From: a virus
IMG/VR virus record: IMGVR_UViG_3300022187_000017
Coordinates: 1-64,000 of that record
Length of the DNA: 64,000 bases
Strand: one strand, 5' to 3'
The notes under the pieces were generated by a model. That model did no database searches and was not told the origin of the DNA. It saw nothing but the letters and a program-made list of their open reading frames with translations. Both the position numbers and the translations under genes were made by a program. This document shows, in pieces, positions 17,840 to 37,296 of this stretch (the first letter of the stretch is position 1; the number at the start of each line of letters is the position of its first letter).

Positions 17840-19366
17840 TTAGACAATGGTAAATTTACCAATGTTTATAAAACGGATAGTCTTACTTGGTACATACAGG
17901 ATTGGAGTTCCATATAACAAGATCATAAATCTGTTAATTGGTGCCAAAACTGCCAGATCCATTTTCATCATTGGAGCCAATTGCTTGAATCCAAATATCT
18001 CCTTATCAGACTGAAGTAGCATAGCCTCCTCAGTGTTAGGTAAGAATCTGTTATTGTCACGAACTGCTAATGCAGCTGCTCCATCCACTCCTGCTACAAG
18101 AGAACCTCTCTTAACATCTGTACCAGCTGCTGGTACAGTCATGATTGGATAGAAATCAGTTGATGCTGCTGCTGCAGATGGATCAACTTCTGAACGATAG
18201 ATCACATAAGCCTCTGGAGCATATGCTCCACCACCTGATACAAAGATCAAGTCAACTGCCTCAGTAGTTGCTACTGTGATTGTTCCACCCACTTGTACTA
18301 ATGCACTCTCTCCATATCGATTGATAGCAGATACTGCATAGTAGTAATCTCCTGCTCCATCAGCAAACCTTGTTAAAGGTGCTGCTACTACTGGTGTAGC
18401 AGATGTTGGAGTTGGAGTAGCTGGTGCCTTAGCAGAACTTGCAGTTCCACCAATAGCCTTAGATGTTCCTTTCACAGCGAAAATATCATGCTCTAAATCG
18501 ATTGTTGCGAATCTAGAGAAATACTTAGTCACTGGCTGACCTAGGCCTGTTCCACCCGGATTACCACCACCAGACTGATTGAATCGTCTTTGAGCAAATA
18601 GCTGCAAAGAGAAGTCTGTGATGATCTGTGGAGGCCCTATCAAAAGATCTGGATGTGCATAATAGCGAAGTAATGTCTCACATGCATCTTCAACATTAGA
18701 TTCTTTTAATGCTCCTCCTCTAAGATCTACAACATGATCAGATTCCATATACTGCTCTAATGAAGAGTAGTTATCCATGTTCAAGTGCTGTGCATAGATA
18801 CCATTCCACTCATCTGAAACTACTGCCTCATCTGCATAGAATAATCCACGATCAGCTTTCTGAAGTAAGTATAACATACCATCAGAAATTTCTTTACGAT
18901 ACAAGTCACCAACTTGGTTCTTCACCAACTGGGCAACATGTGTTACACCTCTTGATACACCCATGTACTTAACTTTTTCAAGTTTACGAGTGTACAGAGA
19001 GTTTTCTTCTTCTGGGAGTTCTCCTTCTGACCAAAAACCTCCACGATCTTGACCATAAGATGTTTGTACGTTGAACTCTTCCACAGTACTGTAGGCAGCT
19101 TCTTTAGCTACTCTTTTCCAGAATCGAATGTGTGAATCTTTCCATTGCGTTAAACGTAACGCATTGTCTAATGATTCATACTTTAACGCTCCAGCATTTG
19201 TCTGGCCAGCAGAAGTGATATCACCACCCTGTACATGTCCAGCTTCCATTGCTTTGGAGAGATCCTGTAACTCTTGAGAACTCATACTAGCATCATTGAC
19301 ATCTTCTTGACCGAAAGAAGCTCCATGTCCTAGTTGGTAATCCCCTAATTTAATTGATAAACTCAT
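17840..19366 (-). CDS. Major capsid protein with Ig/FnIII-like insertion
   Basis: The 508-residue product follows the protease/scaffold gene. An N-terminal helical segment precedes the shell-like core (RLTQWKDSHIRFWKR, VKYMGVSRGVTHVAQLV, VTKYFSRFATIDLEHDIF). A Pro/Thr-rich linker and beta domain interrupt it at about 310-420 (PVVAAPLTRF..YYYAVSAINRYGESALV..), reading like a fibronectin/Ig-type insertion, and the C-terminus resumes with MKMDLAVLAPINRFMIL. Codon use differs from neighbours: CGT/CGA arginine codons and CpG are common, as in a highly expressed gene. A strong terminator follows. Confidence 0.85.
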   Translation of the reverse strand: MSLSIKLGDYQLGHGASFGQEDVNDASMSSQELQDLSKAMEAGHVQGGDITSAGQTNAGALKYESLDNALRLTQWKDSHIRFWKRVAKEAAYSTVEEFNVQTSYGQDRGGFWSEGELPEEENSLYTRKLEKVKYMGVSRGVTHVAQLVKNQVGDLYRKEISDGMLYLLQKADRGLFYADEAVVSDEWNGIYAQHLNMDNYSSLEQYMESDHVVDLRGGALKESNVEDACETLLRYYAHPDLLIGPPQIITDFSLQLFAQRRFNQSGGGNPGGTGLGQPVTKYFSRFATIDLEHDIFAVKGTSKAIGGTASSAKAPATPTPTSATPVVAAPLTRFADGAGDYYYAVSAINRYGESALVQVGGTITVATTEAVDLIFVSGGGAYAPEAYVIYRSEVDPSAAAASTDFYPIMTVPAAGTDVKRGSLVAGVDGAAALAVRDNNRFLPNTEEAMLLQSDKEIFGFKQLAPMMKMDLAVLAPINRFMILLYGTPILYVPSKTIRFINIGKFTIV

Positions 19367-19407: not shown

Positions 19408-21060
19408 TTAGTCTAATATTGTGATTCCTTCACTCTTAGCAAATTCTCTAAGTCTTGGAGTTATTATACTTCCAGCCTCTAGAGCCATTAGATCACCTCT
19501 AACACCTTCAACTACATTTGATGTAGGATCTTCTGATTTCTGCAAGAATGCATCTGTCAACTTAGTTGCTAGAATATTTTTTTGCTTAGACACTGAATAA
19601 ACAGTCCCACCTAAAACATCAGCTTCATCTCCTTTGATGATCTCACCCGGCTTGGCAAGATACTCACTTGTAGTTACTGTCCTTGCCTCTAGTGGAGCAC
19701 CCTTTAATGCTTCTATCTCATCAGATAATCCTTTAATAAGAACTCCAACTGCTTGGAATTTCTCATCACTGGCTGTCTTATTCTTTTCTAAATGACCTGA
19801 GATCATTGTAGAAAGTCCTTTAATCAGGCTATCCTGATCTGTTGGCTCTACAACTTCCTCTTCAGTAGTTGCAGCTGTCTCAACTTCTTCTTCTTCTTCA
19901 ACTTCTTCTTCTTCAACTTCTTCTTCAACCTCTTCTACAACTTCTACAACTTCTTCTGTAGATAACGCTGTAATAGCTGCTAAACTTTTTTCTAGCTCAG
20001 ATTTTCTCTCAGCAATTTCTTCTGGAGACATCTCTGACAATTCCTTGCCACTGGCCATCTCAACAACTTCTTCTGTAGCATCATCCTCAACTACCTCAGT
20101 AGTTTGAGCCTTAACCACAGACAAAGCCTCTAATGCAGAATTGAAATCCTCATCTGATACTTTTTTTTCTGTGCCTGTATTTTCTGTTTGCATCTTTATT
20201 TTTTTGAAATTTAATACATAATTATAAACACTATCAGCTTGCTTCTGAGTAGTGCCTTTATATCGATTAAGTAGTAAATTAGTGAATTCAGACTTACTAA
20301 ACAACTTCTCTTCCGATTTTTTTTCTTTTTTTGTCTTAGAATAAGTCCCATTATCACACTTATGTATGTAACCAGCCTTCTCTAATTCATCTTTATCCTT
20401 GAATTCCTTACCATCATCACTCTTGTAAATCTCTGATTTAGTGTCAGTTTCAAGATCCTCTGGGATAAGTGCATCTGTTGATTCAGTGTCTGCTGCCTTC
20501 TGGATGATCCTACCATCTGTCCCTACTTTGAAGTCACCTAATGCATCAAAGTCTATGAGTTCACCTAATTTGAGACTCTTAGCTATCTCTGTAGTAGTTC
20601 CTAAGTTAATTGGATGAGGAGTGATTGCTAGATCAGTGATCATAGCTCTCTTGATTTTTTTCTTATCATTTGGATCAGTCTCTAGTACCTTACCTTCTAT
20701 AGAAAGACCTAGGCTTAATCCATTTTCTTGCATGGCCTTTGATAGAGCATAAACTTCCTCAGCCATCTTATGTCCTTTAAATAGATAGTAATCTACTTCT
20801 AGATTCCCCTCCTTATTTACTCCAGCAGATGTAGGCTTCCCTATAATGGACATGGGATTCTTCTTCCATTCATGATTCCAGTTGATCAGGCCATTCTTTA
20901 AGAAGTAGGCTAGTTCAAATCCTGATGGATCCAATGTATCACCCTGAGTATCCTTTTTAGGAGTAGAGGCTACACCCTTCATGAGCATAGTCCCATTCTT
21001 GCCTTCTCCTTTGGCCTTTATGAGGTCTATTCTTGTATTATAGCTGAATGTTCTTTCCAT
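19408..21060 (-). CDS. Prohead protease (XkdF/HK97-like) fused to capsid scaffold
   Basis: The product has 550 residues. The protease domain spans about 1-165: GVASTPKKDTQGD, NWNHEWKKNP with likely catalytic His63, GLSLGLSIEG with Ser118, and ITDLAITPHPIN (141-152). A charged linker follows, then a scaffold-like region rich in Glu, with a pure E/V run near 385-410. An in-frame ATG at 20193 (residue 290), preceded by an A-rich leader, could start a separate scaffold. The protein would assemble the procapsid and then cut itself and other head proteins. It lies directly upstream of the capsid gene. Confidence 0.85.
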   Translation of the reverse strand: MERTFSYNTRIDLIKAKGEGKNGTMLMKGVASTPKKDTQGDTLDPSGFELAYFLKNGLINWNHEWKKNPMSIIGKPTSAGVNKEGNLEVDYYLFKGHKMAEEVYALSKAMQENGLSLGLSIEGKVLETDPNDKKKIKRAMITDLAITPHPINLGTTTEIAKSLKLGELIDFDALGDFKVGTDGRIIQKAADTESTDALIPEDLETDTKSEIYKSDDGKEFKDKDELEKAGYIHKCDNGTYSKTKKEKKSEEKLFSKSEFTNLLLNRYKGTTQKQADSVYNYVLNFKKIKMQTENTGTEKKVSDEDFNSALEALSVVKAQTTEVVEDDATEEVVEMASGKELSEMSPEEIAERKSELEKSLAAITALSTEEVVEVVEEVEEEVEEEEVEEEEEVETAATTEEEVVEPTDQDSLIKGLSTMISGHLEKNKTASDEKFQAVGVLIKGLSDEIEALKGAPLEARTVTTSEYLAKPGEIIKGDEADVLGGTVYSVSKQKNILATKLTDAFLQKSEDPTSNVVEGVRGDLMALEAGSIITPRLREFAKSEGITILD

Positions 21061-21068
21061 TATAAATT

Positions 21069-21698
21069 TTAATATTTATGAATTAAGCAGGCTACTCCAA
21101 CAACCTCTACTGTTATATTTGCATCTGCATGAATTCTAATTTCACCCGGATTATCTAATGTCAATTCATTACCCATATATATAGCAGCTGTAGCTGACAA
21201 TTCATAAGTACCTGTACTTTTATAGCTCTCCCTAATTAAATGAACCTCATATTCTGAGACTCCAATTCCAAGAAATGCAGCTAAATGAACATCAGTGAAA
21301 TTACTTAGTGTTGTTACTATAACACTGACTCTAATTGTAATATGATCACCTAGGCTAAGTTGAGAGAAATCAAACTGATCATTATCAACATCCCATACAT
21401 CAGTAACCCCTATTGGAGGATAGAGCTTATTTGTATATGCTCCTTCTCCATCAATTGTTATCTTATGATCTGATCCATTCCCTGTTACTGCTATTGGAGT
21501 TGTTTGAGTTGCTAGATCATTATAATCTAGAGTCCCAATTTCTCTACCTCCAACACCTTCTTGAACAGCAACCTGCTCCCAGAGATATTTACCTTCTTCA
21601 ATTAACTGATTTGCCATGTCACCAGTTCCATGAATGTGAGATGATGTATCTTCCACCCATTTCTTGATTCTTTGAGATAATTCAGTTGTAATTGGCAT
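21069..21698 (-). CDS. Hypothetical head decoration/fibre protein
   Basis: This 209-residue protein has a helical N-terminus (about 1-45) and a beta-rich C-terminal domain (about 70-209) with regular strands such as HITIRVSVIVTTL and YELSATAAIYMG, suggesting a jelly-roll or Ig-like decoration domain. It lies 8 bases upstream of the protease. No enzyme motif is visible. A role on the capsid surface is inferred from location. Confidence 0.6.
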   Translation of the reverse strand: MPITTELSQRIKKWVEDTSSHIHGTGDMANQLIEEGKYLWEQVAVQEGVGGREIGTLDYNDLATQTTPIAVTGNGSDHKITIDGEGAYTNKLYPPIGVTDVWDVDNDQFDFSQLSLGDHITIRVSVIVTTLSNFTDVHLAAFLGIGVSEYEVHLIRESYKSTGTYELSATAAIYMGNELTLDNPGEIRIHADANITVEVVGVACLIHKY

Positions 21699-24110: not shown

Positions 24111-27100
24111 TTAGCCTAGCAATATAGTGAAAGATTGTTGTATATCCAAATTGTCACCCCACTTTAATGATTTTATGATATGCTTGTTCTCTGATAGGAA
24201 CTTCTCAACCAGTGGTTTAATTTCATCATTGAATGTTTTAGCACTTGCATAATTTGGAGCACTCACATATGGGACTCCATCTTTATCCCCACCTCTGATG
24301 GCTCCACCACCTCTGGTATTGTGTGCATGATATTGTTCTAATGCTCTTGCAAAACACTCCTTGGTAGAGTTGGTATACTTACTATTTGACTTAGCATTCA
24401 TACCTCTTCTGAATGCTATAGCTAATTGCCCTGCTGTAGATTCAAAATTATCACTGGCATAATTAGATCCCTCTCCTGTTGCATCATCTAAAAAGTGTGC
24501 TACTTCATGCCCAAATGTAAAATTGAGCTGATCATCACCAAGTTTATTTGTTACCCCTATAGCCTTGAAGGAAGGATAATAAACTCCTATAGCAGTTTTA
24601 GCATACATATATGTAGTTCCTGCATGTGATATTGTAAGGTCATTTTTGTTGGCCAATTCCTTTAGTGTACCAAATGATCCCTGTACATCTCCCCATGCAG
24701 ACTTCAACTGTTCAACTTGAGCTGGCTGGATCTTAGATCCATTCTGCCTCTTAATCATTATACCACTATCTTTCTTCAACATATCATCTCTTCCTGACTT
24801 ACCATAAGATGTTTCTAGAGCCTTAGTTCTGATCTCTGAAACTTCTTCTCTCCTGATAGAAATATCATTGATCTTCCAGTCTAACATCTCTCTATAGTTA
24901 CTCCATGAGCTCCATGCATCTGCATGTGCATATGAAGTACCATAACTATGCTGTCCTCTCCTGAGAATCTCACCCTTTTTAGTTTTTCTCTTAGCATTTG
25001 GATCCACAAATCTCTCATACATTGAGTGAAATGAGCTTGCCATGTGCCTATCATCAAATTTAGCCTTTAATCTTTTCAGACCATGCTTTTTAATTGGCTT
25101 ATATAATTTTTCACGTTCTTTCCATGGCATTGCATCCCACTGTTCTTTTGTGATTTGCTTCTTTACTTTTGCTGGAATTGAATGATATAGATTCTTTTGA
25201 TCCATATACCTCTGCCTAGTTGACTCTGGAAGTCCTTCCCAGTGATCTAGTGATCTTTTATTCTTCCTATCTCTGTCAGCTATCATTTGCCCTTTCTCCA
25301 TAGTCTCATACCAGTTCTGAGTTAGAACTAGCTGATCTAATGTCAATGCTACATACCCTATTTCCTTTGGATCATACTCCCCTTTCTTCTGGCCATACCC
25401 TGCCTTATCTGGCATAGATTCTTCACTATATCCATTGGCAGCAATCATATATTTATTTGGGCCTACTCTAATTGAATCAAATATAAACCCTTTTCTTCTG
25501 AATGCATCTGTATCTATATCTGGAATGAAATTTGGCCTTTCCATATCTAGAATAGTTTTCTCATCATATAGAATGTTATCTGCAGTGTCAATTCCTGAGA
25601 AATCTGGCACATGATCATGCTTAGTGCCAATTGCATCAGTAACTTCTATAATTGTACCTCCATTGGCTGTAGCTAATGCAGCATTCTTTTGATGAATGAT
25701 CTGAAGATCTAGTTTCCTAGTTTTCATCCTATTCTCCATTCTATTACTACTATACTCTGACCTTTTAGAGAAATCTTTAGATTCTCTCTCTAAATTACTT
25801 AACCTATCGATCTTACTCTGATACTCATCTCTCTCCTTGATCATTGCAGCTAATTTTGACTGCTCCTTCTTAACCATCTTACCCTTAACTGTTTTGAATG
25901 CCTGCTTGAAATCATTAATTTCCTCCTCAGATAGATTTGCAATAGTCTCCTCTGCTGCTTTTTTGGCTGCAGCCATAGTTTCTGCCTGCTTTTTATCTTC
26001 TGCCTTCCTATTAGCATTTGCCTCTTCCCTTGCTTTTTTCTGTGCCTGTAGTTCCTTTAGCTGCTTATCAATACTTTCTTTAGTGGCTCCAGCCATCCCT
26101 AATTTCTTAGCTGCCTCTTCACGTTCACGTTTTTTCTTTGCCTCTGGAGTTTCCTCTGGTTTATTCTTTTTTAATGCCTCTGAGATCTTTCTTTTAGTCT
26201 CCTCTGACATTGCCTGTCTTTTCTTGTTATATGAATCCTTCAGATCTGGATATGTAGATAGAACACTATCCTTCATCTTCTCCCCATTATTCACAGCTTT
26301 ACTCACAGCCTGATAGTGAGCATATACTAGCTTTCTGATGAGCTGCTTCTTAGTTAATCCCTCAGTTGATACAGTAGGCTTCCCAGATGAAGATCCTCCA
26401 CTAGAAGTACTCCCTGTACTTTTTGGCTCTTTGTTGATTGATGCAATGGCTGTATCTATCTCTGCCTGATCTATACCATGCATAGACATATATTCACTTA
26501 GAGAATAATTGTGAAGATTCTCAATTGGTTTTATTCCAAATAATTGCTTTCTAGATGGGACTCTATTGCTCTCATTTGTGTTATTTAGAATTTCAGATAT
26601 CTTTTTATTGTTTGTTTCAGCTGGCACATCCATTACCTTCTCATCTACTCCATTCAGATCACCCTCTGCAGTCTTTACATTATACCTAGCTCCATTTTTA
26701 TCTGGAATAACCTCTGATATCTTACCCTTCTCTCCTCCAACATCTACACTTGTACCTACTGGAAGTGCATTCTTTTGACTTATAATCTCATCTGCCTTAT
26801 CTGGATCCTTCTGTAATGATGCAATTCCACCTAATACTTGACTTAAAAACTTAACAGGGAATACCCATCCTTTGAGCTTTCCGTTGAAGGATCCTACACC
26901 AACCTCTTTCTTAATAGTTTGGAATGTGGCTTTATTTGCATATGTGTCCCCAGTTATCAGAACTGCCTTATCTGAATATCTCTCCACATTCATTCCAGCA
27001 ACATCCTCAGCAATTAGATCACCAACTGGCACATTCTTAGATAGTCCCTGCTTAGAAGTCTCATCACCCTCTCTTACCCATACAGTAGTTTGATGTACTT

Positions 27101-27617
27101 TACCATTTCTAGTAACCCACACTCTCTTTTGGACTAATCCGGGTTTGAATCCCTTCTCAATACCTAGTGCCTCAAATGCTGTACCTTTATCCATTGACTT
27201 GCTTATATTTTTATCTCCTGCATTTCTATAAAGTCTATCTATAGCCTCCTGCTTATTATACCCCAAAAAGGAATTATGCCCATATGTATGTGTACTTTTC
27301 ACAGCCTCTCCCCAGAACCCTTTACTATCCTTCTTCACCTCTATCCACTCAGACTCTCCATCTGTTTCTAACCTTTGGATATATTTATCTTTACCCTTGA
27401 TGCTTATCCCATATACAGGCATTTCCATATCTGGCCTGTCCACTATGGTAGCTTTACCTTCAGTAAGAAGTTTCTTTTTAGATGCACTTTTCTTCTCTGG
27501 AACCCAGCCTTTAGCTGTTTTAACTACAGGAGAGCCTCCATGAGTTCTTTTGGTTCCTATTGGAAGTGCCTTCCCTCCCTTTAATATATTAAATGCATCA
27601 TTCTCATCCATTACCAA
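24111..27617 (-). CDS. Large polyvalent virion-associated protein with LPD1/zincin-like C-terminus
   Basis: This 1168-residue protein is Lys/Glu-rich. It opens with the repeated GGKALPIGT...AKGWVPEKK module (13-43). Residues 160-187 form a second small beta module (KRVWVTRNGKVHQTTVWV). Residues 217-254 (VLITGDTYANKATF, GSFNGKLKGWVFP) match a small domain found in large polyvalent proteins. Near 470-485, MSEETKRKISEALKK looks like a NUMOD3 helix, and a coiled coil extends to about 600. The C-terminus has HEVAH (1037-1041) and ECFARALEQY (1087-1096), as in LPD1/zincin-like domains. It is probably packaged and injected, but the substrate is unknown. Confidence 0.7.
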   Translation of the reverse strand: MVMDENDAFNILKGGKALPIGTKRTHGGSPVVKTAKGWVPEKKSASKKKLLTEGKATIVDRPDMEMPVYGISIKGKDKYIQRLETDGESEWIEVKKDSKGFWGEAVKSTHTYGHNSFLGYNKQEAIDRLYRNAGDKNISKSMDKGTAFEALGIEKGFKPGLVQKRVWVTRNGKVHQTTVWVREGDETSKQGLSKNVPVGDLIAEDVAGMNVERYSDKAVLITGDTYANKATFQTIKKEVGVGSFNGKLKGWVFPVKFLSQVLGGIASLQKDPDKADEIISQKNALPVGTSVDVGGEKGKISEVIPDKNGARYNVKTAEGDLNGVDEKVMDVPAETNNKKISEILNNTNESNRVPSRKQLFGIKPIENLHNYSLSEYMSMHGIDQAEIDTAIASINKEPKSTGSTSSGGSSSGKPTVSTEGLTKKQLIRKLVYAHYQAVSKAVNNGEKMKDSVLSTYPDLKDSYNKKRQAMSEETKRKISEALKKNKPEETPEAKKKREREEAAKKLGMAGATKESIDKQLKELQAQKKAREEANANRKAEDKKQAETMAAAKKAAEETIANLSEEEINDFKQAFKTVKGKMVKKEQSKLAAMIKERDEYQSKIDRLSNLERESKDFSKRSEYSSNRMENRMKTRKLDLQIIHQKNAALATANGGTIIEVTDAIGTKHDHVPDFSGIDTADNILYDEKTILDMERPNFIPDIDTDAFRRKGFIFDSIRVGPNKYMIAANGYSEESMPDKAGYGQKKGEYDPKEIGYVALTLDQLVLTQNWYETMEKGQMIADRDRKNKRSLDHWEGLPESTRQRYMDQKNLYHSIPAKVKKQITKEQWDAMPWKEREKLYKPIKKHGLKRLKAKFDDRHMASSFHSMYERFVDPNAKRKTKKGEILRRGQHSYGTSYAHADAWSSWSNYREMLDWKINDISIRREEVSEIRTKALETSYGKSGRDDMLKKDSGIMIKRQNGSKIQPAQVEQLKSAWGDVQGSFGTLKELANKNDLTISHAGTTYMYAKTAIGVYYPSFKAIGVTNKLGDDQLNFTFGHEVAHFLDDATGEGSNYASDNFESTAGQLAIAFRRGMNAKSNSKYTNSTKECFARALEQYHAHNTRGGGAIRGGDKDGVPYVSAPNYASAKTFNDEIKPLVEKFLSENKHIIKSLKWGDNLDIQQSFTILLG

Positions 27618-29053
27618 GTTTTATATGCTGTTAATTCATACCTCCCTGAATCCATTCTGTAGATTGCTACATGAATATTTCTATTCATTGCCTTACCACT
27701 CTTACTTTTGACTGGCTTACCATCTTTCAATAATGGAAGAGTAGCACTCTTAGTAGTTCCATAAGAAACACCACCACTACCATACTGTAAATTTAATGCA
27801 TCTTCATCTACTGTAAACCCATGCTTCTTAGCCTCAGTTCTAACCTGATCTAATGCTCCTGATAGAGTCTCAAAGTAGGTATCACTGCTCTTAAATGATG
27901 ATTTTTTAGCTGGTTTAGCTACTGCTTTTGCTGGATATGACTTCGCTGCTGGATCCTTAGCTTTTGGAGCTGTCTCCTTAGACAATATAGCTGAGAATGT
28001 AACTTTATTATTCCCCTTATATGCTGAAGTCTCTAAATTTATAGATCCACCACCAACATAAATTGTTTTCATTGATGTTTTATTACCACCACTTCTATCA
28101 ACTCCATGTTCTTTATAGAAATTTTTGACTTTATCTATCATACCACTAGGCAGATCTCCACTAAAAGTATACCTTGTATGATCATCGTTATACTCTTTTT
28201 TAGAATTTTTCAATAACCATGATACTTGATTATTTCCCTTAACTTCTTTCTCAGTTAAAGATACCTTCTTTCCATCATGGTATCTTTCTAACTCTTTGGG
28301 AGGCTTCCCTACCTTAAACATATGATTAATATCCTCCTGAGTAGAGTGAACATAACCCTTCCCACCTAATGGATTTGCATTAACAAAATGAGTTTTACCT
28401 CCTTTTGATTTTTCTTTAGCTACATTAGTAACTGCCTCTTTAGAATGGAGATCTTTATCAGATAAATTCTTCCCAAGAGTTGCTGCTTTAGGAGCTTCTT
28501 TCTTCTCTCTATTAGCAATATATTCATTATATGCTTTAAGTCTTATCTCATTTTGAGCTATATCATATTTATTACCTGTCTCTTTGTTATATGCGAGATT
28601 CCTCTTTACAATCTCTCTTATAGCCTTAGCATCCTTGATGCTATCATCTTTATGTCTATATTCAATACCTTGAAGTGTTATTCTATGGTTCTTTTCATCC
28701 TGAGACTCCTCTTTCTTACTAGCTCCAGCTACTTTTGCAGACTTAGCATTACTTCTAACCATAGATTCTCCAAACTTTTCAGCTGCAGATCTAGTTCTTT
28801 TCTCCTCCTGCACATTCCCATCTTTATCTATAACCTGATAGATTGTCTTACTACCAACTTTTCTTTCATTGATTGTGAATCCATCTCCACCTTTCTTACC
28901 CTTCTTTTCTGGAACCCACCCCTTAGCAGTTTTTTCAACATGGACTCCACCATGTACTCTTTTGGTACCTATAGGTAAGGCCTTGCCTCCCTTAATTATC
29001 ATATCTGCCTCAGCTAGATTATGTAACTCTGCTATGTTTAATTCTTTACTCAT
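27611..29053 (-). CDS. Large basic protein with N-terminal GGKALP module
   Basis: The product has 480 residues. Residues 18-50 carry the GGKALPIGT...AKGWVPEKK module, nearly identical to an internal copy in the upstream protein and related to the start of the downstream one. The rest is Lys-rich and includes a charged helical section (about 95-205) and a beta-rich C-terminal part. No catalytic motif is visible. Its ends overlap both neighbours by a few bases, so the three are translated together. A virion or injected protein is likely. Confidence 0.65.
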   Translation of the reverse strand: MSKELNIAELHNLAEADMIIKGGKALPIGTKRVHGGVHVEKTAKGWVPEKKGKKGGDGFTINERKVGSKTIYQVIDKDGNVQEEKRTRSAAEKFGESMVRSNAKSAKVAGASKKEESQDEKNHRITLQGIEYRHKDDSIKDAKAIREIVKRNLAYNKETGNKYDIAQNEIRLKAYNEYIANREKKEAPKAATLGKNLSDKDLHSKEAVTNVAKEKSKGGKTHFVNANPLGGKGYVHSTQEDINHMFKVGKPPKELERYHDGKKVSLTEKEVKGNNQVSWLLKNSKKEYNDDHTRYTFSGDLPSGMIDKVKNFYKEHGVDRSGGNKTSMKTIYVGGGSINLETSAYKGNNKVTFSAILSKETAPKAKDPAAKSYPAKAVAKPAKKSSFKSSDTYFETLSGALDQVRTEAKKHGFTVDEDALNLQYGSGGVSYGTTKSATLPLLKDGKPVKSKSGKAMNRNIHVAIYRMDSGRYELTAYKTW

Positions 29054-31278
29054 GGCTTTTTTATTAAATCATCAAATTTACCAAATCTACCTATATAAGA
29101 AACAACTGACTTTTGTGTTTCATGAGATGCTCTAGCAGCAAAGGTAGTTACATTTTTTCTGGTGAATGTCTGCATATTATTTTTAGCCTTAAATTCCTCA
29201 GTTCCATTTGGAGTAGCTAAATCTATGACTCTATACCCTGTATAAGTATCCCCATTTTTTGAAACAATCTTAACAGCACCTGAAAATCCATTAGTCATAT
29301 CAACTAAGGCTACAACTCCTCCTACTTTTAAGGAATTCAGATTGTTGATTATACTATCTTGCCTATCTCTCTTATTAGCTAATGATATACCTTTTAAATT
29401 AGATCCAATATTGACTCCAACTGTAGGACTCTTATCTTTTACCCCAATATTTTTACCACTCTTATCTTTTATAAATCTACCCTCCATAGCATCTATTTTA
29501 GACTGAGCATTTTTATGTTCTGTAGATCCATGCTTCATCCTATTTCTAGATTCCTTCATCTTATTTATATCCTTAGTATGAGCTAATACACCTGCTGCCT
29601 CTGGAGTTTTTTCACCTTGACGTTTACCTGAGTATTTCTTCTCTGGCACCCATCCCTTAGCTGTCTTTTCAACTGGTACTCCACCATGGACTCTCTTGGT
29701 TCCAATTGGAAGAGCTTTACCACCTTTGATGATCATATTGATCTCAGCTTGGTTATGTAGTTCTGCTACTTCAAGAGCCTTCTTTAGATCATTATTACCA
29801 TCTAACATTGCATGTATGGCCTTAGTGCTATTTGGGAGTTTCTTACCAGTGATACTTTCATAAATATCCTTAGTGAATTTCTGATCATATCTTAATCTAG
29901 ACTTCAGGTAAGGTAGATCATTCTTCTTGATAGCCTCTGCCATCTTATCAAAACTTTGCTTAGATAGTGCCTTCTGGCCACCTCTAACAATTTCTTCTAC
30001 CTTTTCTTTTGTGTATTGCTTGGCACCTTCATCACCTTTACCCATAGCTCTCTCCCAGTTACCAATTTGAGTCTTAACTAGATCATTAGTCCCAAAGTAA
30101 TCTTTCTTATCATACTTATCAAAGATAGCATTAAATTTAGCCTCTGGAGAATCTTTTGGAGTATCTTTCTGGTGCTGCTCTACAGCATCTCTAATACCCA
30201 TGGAGATATCCTCTTCCATAATCTTCACTACAGCATCTTTGTTATCCATGAAATATTTAACCTGCTCTTCAGAAGGTTTCATGTCATTCATTGCATCAAG
30301 AGATCTTTGTTTCTTTGATATCATGCCATCAGTAACACTCTTATGGCCACTCTCTGCTAATGCTGCTTTGGCCTCCTCTGTGGTATGCTTATGCCCTACT
30401 GGATTCTTACCAAACATCTCCTCATATGTTTTCTGGCTCTTACCATACTTAGCTGCTGATTTCTTTTTTTCAGCTGCTTTCCTATGATTAAACAGCTCCT
30501 TTGATGTATCATTTACCTCCTTTACAGTTTTTGGATCTGCCTTCCCTGTAGATGCTACATCTTTCTTATGTTTAGCCATTGCATTATCATGAGCTTCCTT
30601 TTTAGCATCTCCTTCAAGATCATTCAATACCTTTTTTAAACTAGATAAGTGCTGTTCATCTCTAGCATTGGTGACATTGCCCTGCTTCTTAATTCTATCT
30701 TCAAATATTTTTATTGCCTCCTTTATTTTATCCACATCCATCTTACCATCATCCTTCTTAGCTGGTTCCTTCTTAGCTGATTCCTTCTTCTCTAGTTCCT
30801 CCTTCTCTGGATCAGGCTTACCACCTAAATCATCAAATGATGCACCTTCTTTTGATGCATCCTCATGAGAGGCCTTAACCATTTTATTCACCACATCTTG
30901 AGGTACCATATGCTGTGCTGCTGGCTCTAATGATTGGAATATCTCATATGCTTTTTTGGGATCTGCCTCCATGATCTCCTTCATGTGAGTAAGTTGAGCT
31001 AAATCATGCTTACTTGCTGGCTCTACCTGCCCACCTTTACCTCCTGCTGGAGCTGCTGCTGTTGGAGTTGGAGCACCTTCTTTACCTGCACCCTTCTTAC
31101 CAGATGAAACTTCCTTCCATTCACCTGCAGTTTTCTTATACTTCTTACCATTTTTGTAAGTATGTATTGTTCCCTCTGGAGCTCCACCCGGGAAGTGAGT
31201 CCCACCAGTGGCACCTTTAAGGATCTCTGCTCCTATACCTAATCTATTATTCTGAATAGCATCTATTACTTGTTTCAT
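29050..31278 (-). CDS. Large Lys/Glu-rich protein with two copies of the module
   Basis: The product has 742 residues. An N-terminal variant of the module lies at 24-58 (GGTHFPGGAPEGT, KYKKTAGEWKEV). A long helical Lys/Glu/Ala region spans about 60-500. A second, nearly canonical copy (GGKALPIGTKRVHGG) lies near 520-550, preceded by VAELHNQAE, which also matches the start of the next protein. The final 190 residues are beta-rich. The internal copy plus its flank suggests past duplication or fusion of a whole N-terminus. The function is unknown; a virion-packaged protein cut at modules by the head protease is one possibility. Confidence 0.65.
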   Translation of the reverse strand: MKQVIDAIQNNRLGIGAEILKGATGGTHFPGGAPEGTIHTYKNGKKYKKTAGEWKEVSSGKKGAGKEGAPTPTAAAPAGGKGGQVEPASKHDLAQLTHMKEIMEADPKKAYEIFQSLEPAAQHMVPQDVVNKMVKASHEDASKEGASFDDLGGKPDPEKEELEKKESAKKEPAKKDDGKMDVDKIKEAIKIFEDRIKKQGNVTNARDEQHLSSLKKVLNDLEGDAKKEAHDNAMAKHKKDVASTGKADPKTVKEVNDTSKELFNHRKAAEKKKSAAKYGKSQKTYEEMFGKNPVGHKHTTEEAKAALAESGHKSVTDGMISKKQRSLDAMNDMKPSEEQVKYFMDNKDAVVKIMEEDISMGIRDAVEQHQKDTPKDSPEAKFNAIFDKYDKKDYFGTNDLVKTQIGNWERAMGKGDEGAKQYTKEKVEEIVRGGQKALSKQSFDKMAEAIKKNDLPYLKSRLRYDQKFTKDIYESITGKKLPNSTKAIHAMLDGNNDLKKALEVAELHNQAEINMIIKGGKALPIGTKRVHGGVPVEKTAKGWVPEKKYSGKRQGEKTPEAAGVLAHTKDINKMKESRNRMKHGSTEHKNAQSKIDAMEGRFIKDKSGKNIGVKDKSPTVGVNIGSNLKGISLANKRDRQDSIINNLNSLKVGGVVALVDMTNGFSGAVKIVSKNGDTYTGYRVIDLATPNGTEEFKAKNNMQTFTRKNVTTFAARASHETQKSVVSYIGRFGKFDDLIKKP

Positions 31279-35713: not shown

Positions 35714-36346
35714 TTAATCCTCTGGCATGATCTCATTCTCCTCATCCTTTGGTAAATTATAGTCTCCATTCTCACTAAAATCTGATTCATCATACCCTCC
35801 TCTATATTGATCACCCCTCCTATTATTATCTTTCCAGTCATCATTTCTGGTGCCTCCTTCTATAACATATAATAGCCTATCTACTTTCTTTCTTATCCAG
35901 TCAGCCATCAACTTAATAGAATATGATACTGCATCAAATTCTGTTAACTCCTGTCCTGTTCTTATTGAATATAGATTACCTAGTGTAGAGTACCCCTCAT
36001 GCAGTGATAGGATCATTAGTCCCCAATTAAGCATCTTTACTGCATCATCTGTAAATAGTGAATATATTGTTGCTAATATAACTGGAAAGATCAGCATAAC
36101 GAACTTAGAGGCTACCCTTCTAAGTCCTGTTTTGCTGTCTGGCCTTCTCATAGTTGGAACCACTATTGACTTTACAATACCTGTAATAATATCAAATGTC
36201 CACAGTAGTAGAAATACCCCTAGGAATTTAACATTTACCCCATAATCTGCTAACCAATATAACATAGATGCACCAAAGTAAGGTGCTGATTTTAATAGTC
36301 CAGTAAAACTCATGTCTATTTTTAGTATTCTATCAAGCATTATCAA
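35714..36346 (-). CDS. Phage holin (holin_4-like family)
   Basis: The 210-residue protein has hydrophobic segments near 18-33, 38-60 and 85-105 and the family-like motif LLLWTFDIITGIVKSI, in which D-I-I-T-G is the conserved turn of the phi-C31/Cp-1 holin class (PF05105). A charged, hydrophilic C-terminus follows. It would form membrane lesions timing lysis. Its nearest possible lysis partners are the spanin-like pair 3-4 kb downstream. Start codons at 36346 and 36340 are both possible. Confidence 0.75.
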   Translation of the reverse strand: MIMLDRILKIDMSFTGLLKSAPYFGASMLYWLADYGVNVKFLGVFLLLWTFDIITGIVKSIVVPTMRRPDSKTGLRRVASKFVMLIFPVILATIYSLFTDDAVKMLNWGLMILSLHEGYSTLGNLYSIRTGQELTEFDAVSYSIKLMADWIRKKVDRLLYVIEGGTRNDDWKDNNRRGDQYRGGYDESDFSENGDYNLPKDEENEIMPED

Positions 36347-36366: not shown

Positions 36367-37296
36367 TTATCCTATCTTTCTAATTATAAAGTCTAATTCA
36401 CTCTCTCCACCTGTTGTATCCTCAAGTCCATTAAGATCTGCCAATACTTCCTGCCCTGCTGCTACTAGAGCATCTCTAATAGCTTTTCCTTGATATGGGC
36501 TATGTTCCTGATCAAATAAAATACAATCATCCACAACTAACTCCAATGAACTTGCTGACCATACCCTAGTAGGTACTGACTTCACTGCTATATTAGAGAG
36601 CATATCATAATAACTATCTCTTAATGTAGTAAATGTTGGATCTTCAAAATCACTCCATTCATCAAATCCATTACCATATGTTCTATCAACTCTTTGCTTT
36701 GCAGCTGGATCATCATCATATTGGCAGCTTACATCATAACCACTGGATACAAAGTCAGCAAATATGACTGACTCCCATTGAGGATACCAATATCCTGCCT
36801 GTGGGCCTTGTAGTGCTATTGCAACTACATCAGCATCTTCATCTTCAATGGCACTTCCACCACCTGCAGCAAAAGTATTATAGCCTATGTGTTGAGCTAT
36901 ACCTGTACCTGCAGAGCTACCTCTTATTACAAATTTGTTTTTATCAAGATTGAAGAATGTTGCCCAGAACTTTAGAAACTTCACTGCTCTTACTCCTGAG
37001 TCAAATGCTTTTCTAAATCCATTTAATTCAATATCTGTATTTACAAAAGGATAGTTTACTGTAGCTATTGCAATACCATTGGATAAGAAGTTCTCTACAT
37101 CAGTTAGACTTATACCAGTCTTATCTAATGCAACAAAACCACCACCATGAAAATGTACTACTATACCTGTTGTGGGTACTGAAGTAGGTATCCATATATC
37201 TAACACCTCTTTATTCTCATACCCATATTGAATATTATTATAAAAAGTATGAGGTGTTACCAATGTATGGTATGAAGATGATGATATAAACCCCAT
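36367..37296 (-). CDS. Alpha/beta-hydrolase esterase (HSL-like)
   Basis: The product has 309 residues. HGGGF (50-54) supplies the oxyanion hole typical of the hormone-sensitive-lipase/carboxylesterase group. GSSAG (126-130) supplies the nucleophile Ser128. A C-terminal DQEHSPYQG holds a plausible catalytic His. No signal peptide is visible. Its place beside tail-fibre-like genes suggests deacetylation of a surface or capsular polysaccharide during adsorption, but an intracellular esterase is not excluded. Confidence 0.75.
   Translation of the reverse strand: MGFISSSSYHTLVTPHTFYNNIQYGYENKEVLDIWIPTSVPTTGIVVHFHGGGFVALDKTGISLTDVENFLSNGIAIATVNYPFVNTDIELNGFRKAFDSGVRAVKFLKFWATFFNLDKNKFVIRGSSAGTGIAQHIGYNTFAAGGGSAIEDEDADVVAIALQGPQAGYWYPQWESVIFADFVSSGYDVSCQYDDDPAAKQRVDRTYGNGFDEWSDFEDPTFTTLRDSYYDMLSNIAVKSVPTRVWSASSLELVVDDCILFDQEHSPYQGKAIRDALVAAGQEVLADLNGLEDTTGGESELDFIIRKIG

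What the first reader, a model, noticed from the sequence alone, without database searches (positions are those of the whole stretch)
24111..27617. Polyvalent protein with HEXXH/LPD1-like end and a NUMOD3-like helix
One 1168-residue protein links the module, a LITGDTY...GWVFP domain, a NUMOD3-like helix and a HEVAH...ECFARALEQY end. Its location beside the MuF-like protein recalls injected effector polyproteins. Zincin-type activity could attack host proteins after injection.
Basis: inference. Interest (0 to 1): 0.6.

Follow-up and report, generated by a model that had tools for sequence, protein, structure and literature searches.

The report
Phage head-region polyvalent zinc-protease protein
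This phage gene, lying between the genes for the DNA portal and the capsid, encodes a large multi-domain protein whose far end is a conserved, probably working zinc protease of a kind that phages and plasmids are thought to carry into new host cells; that protease is shared by at least 26 other phages that attach it to quite different enzymes.

Summary
On the minus strand, 24111-27611 encodes a 1166-aa protein (the listed TTG start adds two residues) with the features named. The C-terminal 218 aa are a zincin-type metallopeptidase. H1037, E1038, H1041, D1044 and E1087 are identical in 27 of 27 diverged members. A confident AlphaFold model matches solved gluzincins (prob 1.00 to the catalytic domain of lethal factor; then PPEP-1, selecase, IrrE).

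LPD1-like is right through relatives. LPD1, so far of unknown function, also proved to be the third-zinc-ligand half of such zincins: in 10 of 10 plasmid LPD1 proteins an HExxHxxD lies 45-174 aa upstream. The NUMOD3-like helix passes Pfam's cut-off in a relative.

The MuF neighbour is not supported. The gene instead lies in the portal-to-protease-to-capsid block, and relatives keep this place while swapping effector domains (NUDIX, InPase, ART, RelA/SpoT, RadC, methyltransferase, helicase, PBECR1), fused or as nearby genes.

Best reading: a packaged, ejected polyvalent protein whose zincin mainly processes itself or co-packaged partners; attack on host proteins is the chief rival. Virion location, catalysis and substrate are untested.

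The parts
24111..27611 (-). Gene for the polyvalent protein, 1166 aa from the ATG at 27611 (a TTG at 27617 in frame is the mechanical start)
   Evidence: relatives
27489..27587 (-). Shared N-terminal module (KGGKALPIGTKRTHGGSPVVKTAKGWVPEKK), residues 11-43
   Evidence: Profile hits in three consecutive genes; 133-nt DNA repeat at 66-77% identity. An analogous GT.R-type N-terminal stretch is seen by eye in the Leptospira phage homologue and in L036, L040
27072..27137 (-). Predicted beta hairpin KRVWVTRNGKVHQTTVWVRE, residues 161-182, conserved in many family members
   Evidence: alignment A7; model strands 159-168 and 171-180 at low confidence
26820..27017 (-). GDTYANK..GWVFP domain, residues about 201-266 (alpha/beta, fold unassigned)
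   Evidence: conserved in L014, L025-L028, L030; no Pfam family; no PDB fold match
26625..26750 (-). Small beta domain (SH3/tudor-like by eye), residues 290-331
   Evidence: strands 288-329 of the model, block pLDDT 82-90; weak tudor matches only
26517..26594 (-). PENR motif (EILNNTNESNRVPSRKQLFGIKPIEN), residues 342-367
   Evidence: profile hit in 23 of 27 family members; outside them only the near-identical copy L032 of member L033
26169..26210 (-). NUMOD3-like helix, residues 470-483
   Evidence: sub-threshold in this protein, over the Pfam cut-off in relative L025; conserved in L025, L028, L029, L030
24816..25589 (-). Accessory domain with YIPDID motif and long helices, residues 677-934, directly before the zincin
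   Evidence: alignment A4; model
24162..24815 (-). Zincin metallopeptidase domain, residues 935-1152
   Evidence: alignment A5; AF2 model; Foldseek to zincins
24495..24509 (-). HEVAH, residues 1037-1041 (first two zinc ligands and general base); D1044 follows three residues on
   Evidence: invariant in 27 of 27
24330..24359 (-). ECFARALEQY, residues 1087-1096: LPD1-like helix carrying the predicted third zinc ligand E1087
   Evidence: E, C, F, A, R and E1094 invariant in 27 of 27; LPD1 profile hits 9 of 11 family members
27611..29053 (-). Upstream overlapping gene (480 aa) sharing the module
   Evidence: no family hit
29050..31278 (-). Next upstream overlapping gene (742 aa) with two module copies (residues 24-59 and 516-548); relative in L025
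32264..34057 (-). Portal protein (context)
   Evidence: PF04860 E=6.6e-29
19408..21060 (-). Head maturation protease (context)
   Evidence: phrog_1028 E=8.3e-31
17840..19366 (-). Major head protein (context)
   Evidence: phrog_752 E=5.5e-67

Best explanation
The gene encodes an internal-head polyvalent protein of a myovirus-type phage. It is made with two co-encoded module-bearing proteins, packaged in the head and ejected with the DNA. Its C-terminal domain is a catalytically competent zincin (gluzincin) of the LPD1-containing phage type: H1037, H1041 and E1087 bind zinc, E1038 is the base, and D1044 and H998 line the pocket. The most likely job of the zincin is proteolytic processing of the polyvalent protein itself and of co-packaged partners, during head assembly or on ejection. 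The N-terminal module is probably a head-targeting element. Shown: sequence, conservation, predicted fold, gene position, swapping of cargo. Inferred: activity, packaging, ejection, substrate.
For: HExxHxxD plus Glu invariant in 27 of 27 diverged members. AF2 model with mean pLDDT 81.6 and zincin matches in the PDB and to MuF/minor-capsid-fused zincins and LPD proteins of phages. The gene lies between portal and head protease/major head protein, and the family keeps that place upstream of the major head protein on the same strand in at least 15 other loci. Relatives carry hallmark polyvalent domains: InPase, ART-PolyVal, PBECR1, RadC, RelA_SpoT, NUDIX, methyltransferase, SNF2-type helicase. 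The same cargo appears fused to the zincin core or as a nearby separate ORF, as expected if fused forms end up as separate units. The conserved PENR motif between cargo and core is missing in L016 and L024, which lack N-terminal cargo, as well as in L035 and the truncated L017. Precedent: P1 DdrB is processed before packaging, and autoproteolysis is the main role proposed for these MPTases (PMC5512222).
Against: No family member has been seen in a virion in the papers found. No catalysis or cleavage data exist. Minimal members (L023, 567 aa; L033, 554 aa) have no recognised cargo on the same chain, so cis-release cannot be the only function. The N4 virion polymerase carries such a domain but is packaged uncleaved (PMC5512222). 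A separate head maturation protease is encoded next door. L035 has about 220 aa ahead of the core but no PENR motif.
Confidence: 0.55

Rival explanations
1. Injected protease effector: the zincin is delivered into the new host cell and cuts a host protein (a defence, transcription or envelope factor).
For: Nearest solved folds are effector-type zincins; Pfam hits in some members to ATLF and Peptidase_M91 'effector protein'; minimal members without cargo; head-gene position; listed as a possibility in PMC5512222.
Against: The core is nearly constant while everything else varies, and it is kept in phages of different hosts (Leptospira, a Bacteroidales contig), which is less expected for an enzyme tracking a host target. 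No host substrate is known.
Confidence: 0.3
2. The zincin core is mainly structural: a packaging scaffold that keeps the catalytic residues but whose essential role is loading polyvalent proteins into the head.
For: The MPTase region of the N4 virion polymerase is required for encapsidation although the protein is not cleaved (PMC5512222). A constant core next to head genes in the loci where context could be read.
Against: Strict invariance of all catalytic residues in 27 of 27 points to chemistry; a scaffold would be expected to lose some.
Confidence: 0.1
3. An extra head-maturation protease that cuts capsid or scaffold proteins.
For: Position directly upstream of the head protease and major head protein in many relatives.
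Against: A standard head maturation protease is already present; the size and the changing effector domains of the family do not fit a maturation enzyme.
Confidence: 0.04
4. HEVAH and ECFARALEQY are chance motifs in a coiled-coil structural protein.
For: About half of the N-terminal model is low-confidence or coiled; direct Pfam matches are weak.
Against: Invariance, fold prediction and structural matches.
Confidence: 0.01

Closest known systems
phrog_22901 (unknown function; its 1394-position length equals that of the protein in L020)
   Same: E=2.1e-50 over the zincin, residues 900-1150; L018, L024, L025, L031, L033 and P0005 also hit it
   Different: The match to the window protein covers only the zincin end of the 1394-position model; the module, GDTY domain and NUMOD3 helix are outside the matched part
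Leptospira phage vB_LinZ_10-LE1 protein LEP1GSC047_0862 (AGS80813.1; the Foldseek hit S5VLA8 is also 684 aa)
   Same: Analogous N-terminal module, PENR motif and C-terminal accessory plus zincin; 38% identity over 243 aa; structural match E=1.7e-25
   Different: 684 aa; lacks the GDTY domain and NUMOD3 helix
LPD1 (PF18796)
   Same: The ExFARAxExY helix; 9 of 11 family members hit
   Different: The window protein itself does not reach the model
Phage-type zincin-like MPTase of polyvalent proteins (Iyer et al. 2017, PMC5512222)
   Same: HEXXH, Asp three residues after it, conserved His before it, Glu in a later helix, polyvalent context
   Different: Pfam's MPTase-PolyVal model (PF18818) hardly hits: 1 of 11 members, E=0.028
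Lethal factor catalytic domain / PPEP-1 type gluzincins
   Same: Fold: Foldseek prob 1.00 and 0.72-0.87
   Different: Fold only: 12-16% identity; no evidence of shared substrate; a phage protein with no link to that toxin's other parts
Phage P1 DdrB and DarB
   Same: Large internal head proteins; DdrB with a C-terminal MPTase domain (PMC5512222); [quoted passage not shown]
   Different: Sequence relationship not tested; no DdrB-like ParB domain recognised here

Membership tests
Zincin (gluzincin) metallopeptidase | HExxH on one helix | tested here: met
   H1037, E1038, H1041 invariant in 27 of 27; in helix 352-371 of the model
Zincin (gluzincin) metallopeptidase | Third ligand Glu on a later helix | tested here: met
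   E1087 invariant in 27 of 27, in helix 409-426 of the model; ligand geometry could not be measured as coordinates are not given
Zincin (gluzincin) metallopeptidase | Zincin fold | tested here: met
   Foldseek matches to zincins at prob 1.00; E-values 0.0013-0.0035, just above the 0.001 mark
Zincin (gluzincin) metallopeptidase | Zinc binding and proteolysis | not testable with these tools
   needs protein
LPD1 (PF18796) | Match over the curated cut-off | tested here: not met
   No match in the window record at E<=10; P0005 25.6 bits against 27; 9 of 11 members below E=1, best 7.3e-5
LPD1 (PF18796) | Sequence link to accepted LPD1 proteins | tested here: met
   tblastn E=1e-7 to Leptospira weilii plasmid LPD1 protein, which hits LPD1 at 2.5e-20
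Polyvalent protein (Iyer et al. 2017) | Several distinct domains on one chain, with effector or mobile-element domains | tested here: met
   Family level: InPase, ART-PolyVal, PBECR1, RadC, NUDIX and others. The window protein itself has only the zincin as a recognised enzyme
Polyvalent protein (Iyer et al. 2017) | Encoded among virion genes (phage type) | tested here: met
Polyvalent protein (Iyer et al. 2017) | Packaged and delivered into the host | not testable with these tools
   no virion proteomics found
NUMOD3 | Match over Pfam cut-off 20.4 bits | tested here: inconclusive
   14.7 bits here; 21.0 bits for the same helix in L025
MuF-associated effector | MuF domain in the protein or its neighbour | tested here: not met
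   no PF04233 match at E<=10 in the record; controls rang

The most novel reading that the evidence does not exclude
A phage 'chassis' for polyvalent proteins: small beta domain, PENR motif, YIPDID domain and LPD1 zincin form one conserved packaging-and-processing unit onto which unrelated effectors are swapped in cis or as neighbouring genes, with the PENR motif as the self-cleavage or docking site; and LPD1 in general is simply the third-ligand half of this zincin.
Probability: 0.3. Interest if true: 0.65.

Novelty: new variant of a known kind. Interest (0 to 1): 0.45.

Why it matters
It gives a function to phrog_22901, listed as unknown, and a structural meaning to LPD1, one of the domains whose functions were called elusive in 2017: it carries the third zinc ligand of an HExxHxxD zincin. 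It also supplies a set of small, testable members (554-567 aa) with which the open question of what polyvalent-protein zincins cut (themselves, co-packaged proteins or host proteins) can be answered directly.

Tried and rejected
A direct LPD1 search in the record found nothing; the link came only through relatives. MuF was searched and not found. Separate InPase and NUDIX genes in the record: no match (the InPase search had no positive control). Sequence search of the PDB with the single protein and with the profile gave no convincing hit; the dynein light chain and IrrE matches are weak. The N-terminal half was folded: mean pLDDT 64 and no PDB match with confidence, so the GDTY domain stays unassigned. 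A search for the module in viral contigs found only near-identical copies of this phage. PADLOC: none. LE3/LE4 virion proteomics (PMC6078989) does not help because no homologue was found in those phages. LPD1 among 396 genomes of the phylum of the L024 genome: one hit, with a degenerate HEWGN. Chance origin of the motif: rejected.

Full report
OBSERVATION. The ORF lies on the minus strand, 24111..27617, open for 1168 codons. The probable start is the ATG at 27611, overlapping the stop of the upstream gene. Three genes in a row (742, 480 and 1166 aa) overlap each other by a few bases, so they look co-translated.

THE C-TERMINUS IS A ZINCIN. Only a Leptospira phage protein was found at first among annotated phages (35% identity overall, 38% over 243 aa, E about 1e-37). 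From a two-sequence profile, 12 viral contigs and one Bacteroidales contig were fetched, and from their profile 28 loci. The two profile scans of viral contigs chose loci by patterns such as ETSYG, EKF..EN and, in the second scan, ECFARA, so ECFARA conservation is partly a selection effect in the later loci; HExxHxxD was in no pattern, and ECFAR is also invariant in the first set. Over 27 non-identical members (median pairwise identity 45%, minimum 31%) H1037, E1038, H1041, D1044, E1087, R1091 and E1094 never vary, and H998 varies once. AlphaFold2 on residues 677-1152 with 11 sequences gave mean pLDDT 81.6, pTM 0.77. Foldseek against the PDB gave the catalytic domain of lethal factor (prob 1.00, E 0.0013-0.0035), then PPEP-1/Zmp1, selecase and IrrE, all zincins. 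Among viral models the Leptospira phage protein matched at 1.7e-25, followed by head-morphogenesis/minor-capsid fusions and large polyvalent proteins. Iyer et al. describe a widespread phage-type MPTase with a conserved His before the motif and an Asp three residues after HEXXH (PMC5512222); H998 and D1044 fit that description.

LPD1. The window protein does not reach the LPD1 model, but 9 of 11 members do weakly (best 7.3e-5), the Leptospira phage protein scores 25.6 bits against a cut-off of 27, and a Leptospira weilii plasmid protein related to ours (E=1e-7) hits LPD1 at 2.5e-20. To see what LPD1 is, I searched plasmids with the LPD1 stretch alone and read ten diverse loci: every one has HExxHxxD 45-174 aa upstream in the same frame. 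One Bacteroidota LPD1 protein has a degenerate HEWGN. LPD1 is therefore best read as the helix with the third zinc ligand of this zincin type. The 2017 paper lists LPD1 among domains of elusive function; no paper in the library names PF18796.

OTHER DOMAINS. LITGDTY..GWVFP is conserved in at least six relatives, always ahead of the zincin, with no Pfam or PDB match. The SEETKRKISEALK helix is conserved in L025, L028, L030 (variant in L029) and passes the NUMOD3 cut-off in L025. A motif not described in what I read, here called PENR (for example ATPENRxxxxxxLFG), is found in 23 of 27 members, about 290-670 residues before HExxH, and outside them only in a near-identical copy of one member. L016 and L024, which start close to the zincin core, lack it; so do L035, which has about 220 aa ahead of the core, and the truncated L017.

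CONTEXT. The gene lies between the portal and the head maturation protease and major head protein; a tail sheath gene marks a contractile tail. In at least 15 other loci the zincin gene lies upstream of a major head protein homologue on the same strand. No MuF domain was found. The first 45 residues share a module with the two upstream genes (DNA identity 66-77%); an analogous start occurs in the Leptospira phage protein. In phage P1 the first 30 residues of DarB suffice to target a reporter to the capsid (PMC9024508); that the module here does likewise is inference.

FAMILY PATTERN. Relatives carry NUDIX, InPase, ART-PolyVal, RadC, RelA_SpoT, methyltransferase, SNF2-type helicase and PBECR1 domains. 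The same cargo domains occur as separate ORFs close by in other loci, for example InPase in L018, L022, L033, L037 and RelA/SpoT with RadC in L023. Minimal members have the core alone.

MECHANISM. A constant catalytic core with exchanged cargo, split or fused, in the head-gene block is best explained by a packaged polyvalent protein in which the zincin processes itself and partners. P1 DdrB is processed before packaging, while the N4 polymerase is not (PMC5512222), so both outcomes have precedent. The host-protein-attack reading stays open at about 0.3.

LIMITS. Coordinates of the models are not available, so ligand geometry and PENR docking could not be measured. The window record is a virus record of 105,777 bases, possibly a fragment, with unknown host. 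No experimental data on any member were found.

Noticed in passing
L019:6046-11133 (+): Relative with zincin and InPase in which the InPase domain is interrupted by an apparent intein (LAGLIDADG and splicing-domain matches).
   Followed up: partly
window 27490-27622, 28902-29034, 29636-29768: 133-nt repeat (66-77% identity) encoding the shared module in three consecutive genes; could serve recombination of N-termini.
   Followed up: partly
window 21069-21698 (-): 209-aa gene just upstream of the head protease matching phrog_8270 and phrog_2725 (annotated acetyl-CoA acetyltransferase).
   Followed up: no
window 36367-37296 (-): Gene matching a phage esterase family (phrog_3341), near a holin-like gene at 35714-36346.
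   Followed up: no
L044 (Bacteroidota genome): LPD1 protein whose upstream motif reads HEWGN, a possible inactive zincin.
   Followed up: partly
L024:8029-13314 (+): 1761-aa protein on a Bacteroidales MAG contig with the zincin near its N-terminus and ParB-like and RNA-ligase-family matches at the other end.
   Followed up: no
L031:814-5910 (+): 1698-aa relative combining RadC, ART-PolyVal and the zincin core.
   Followed up: no
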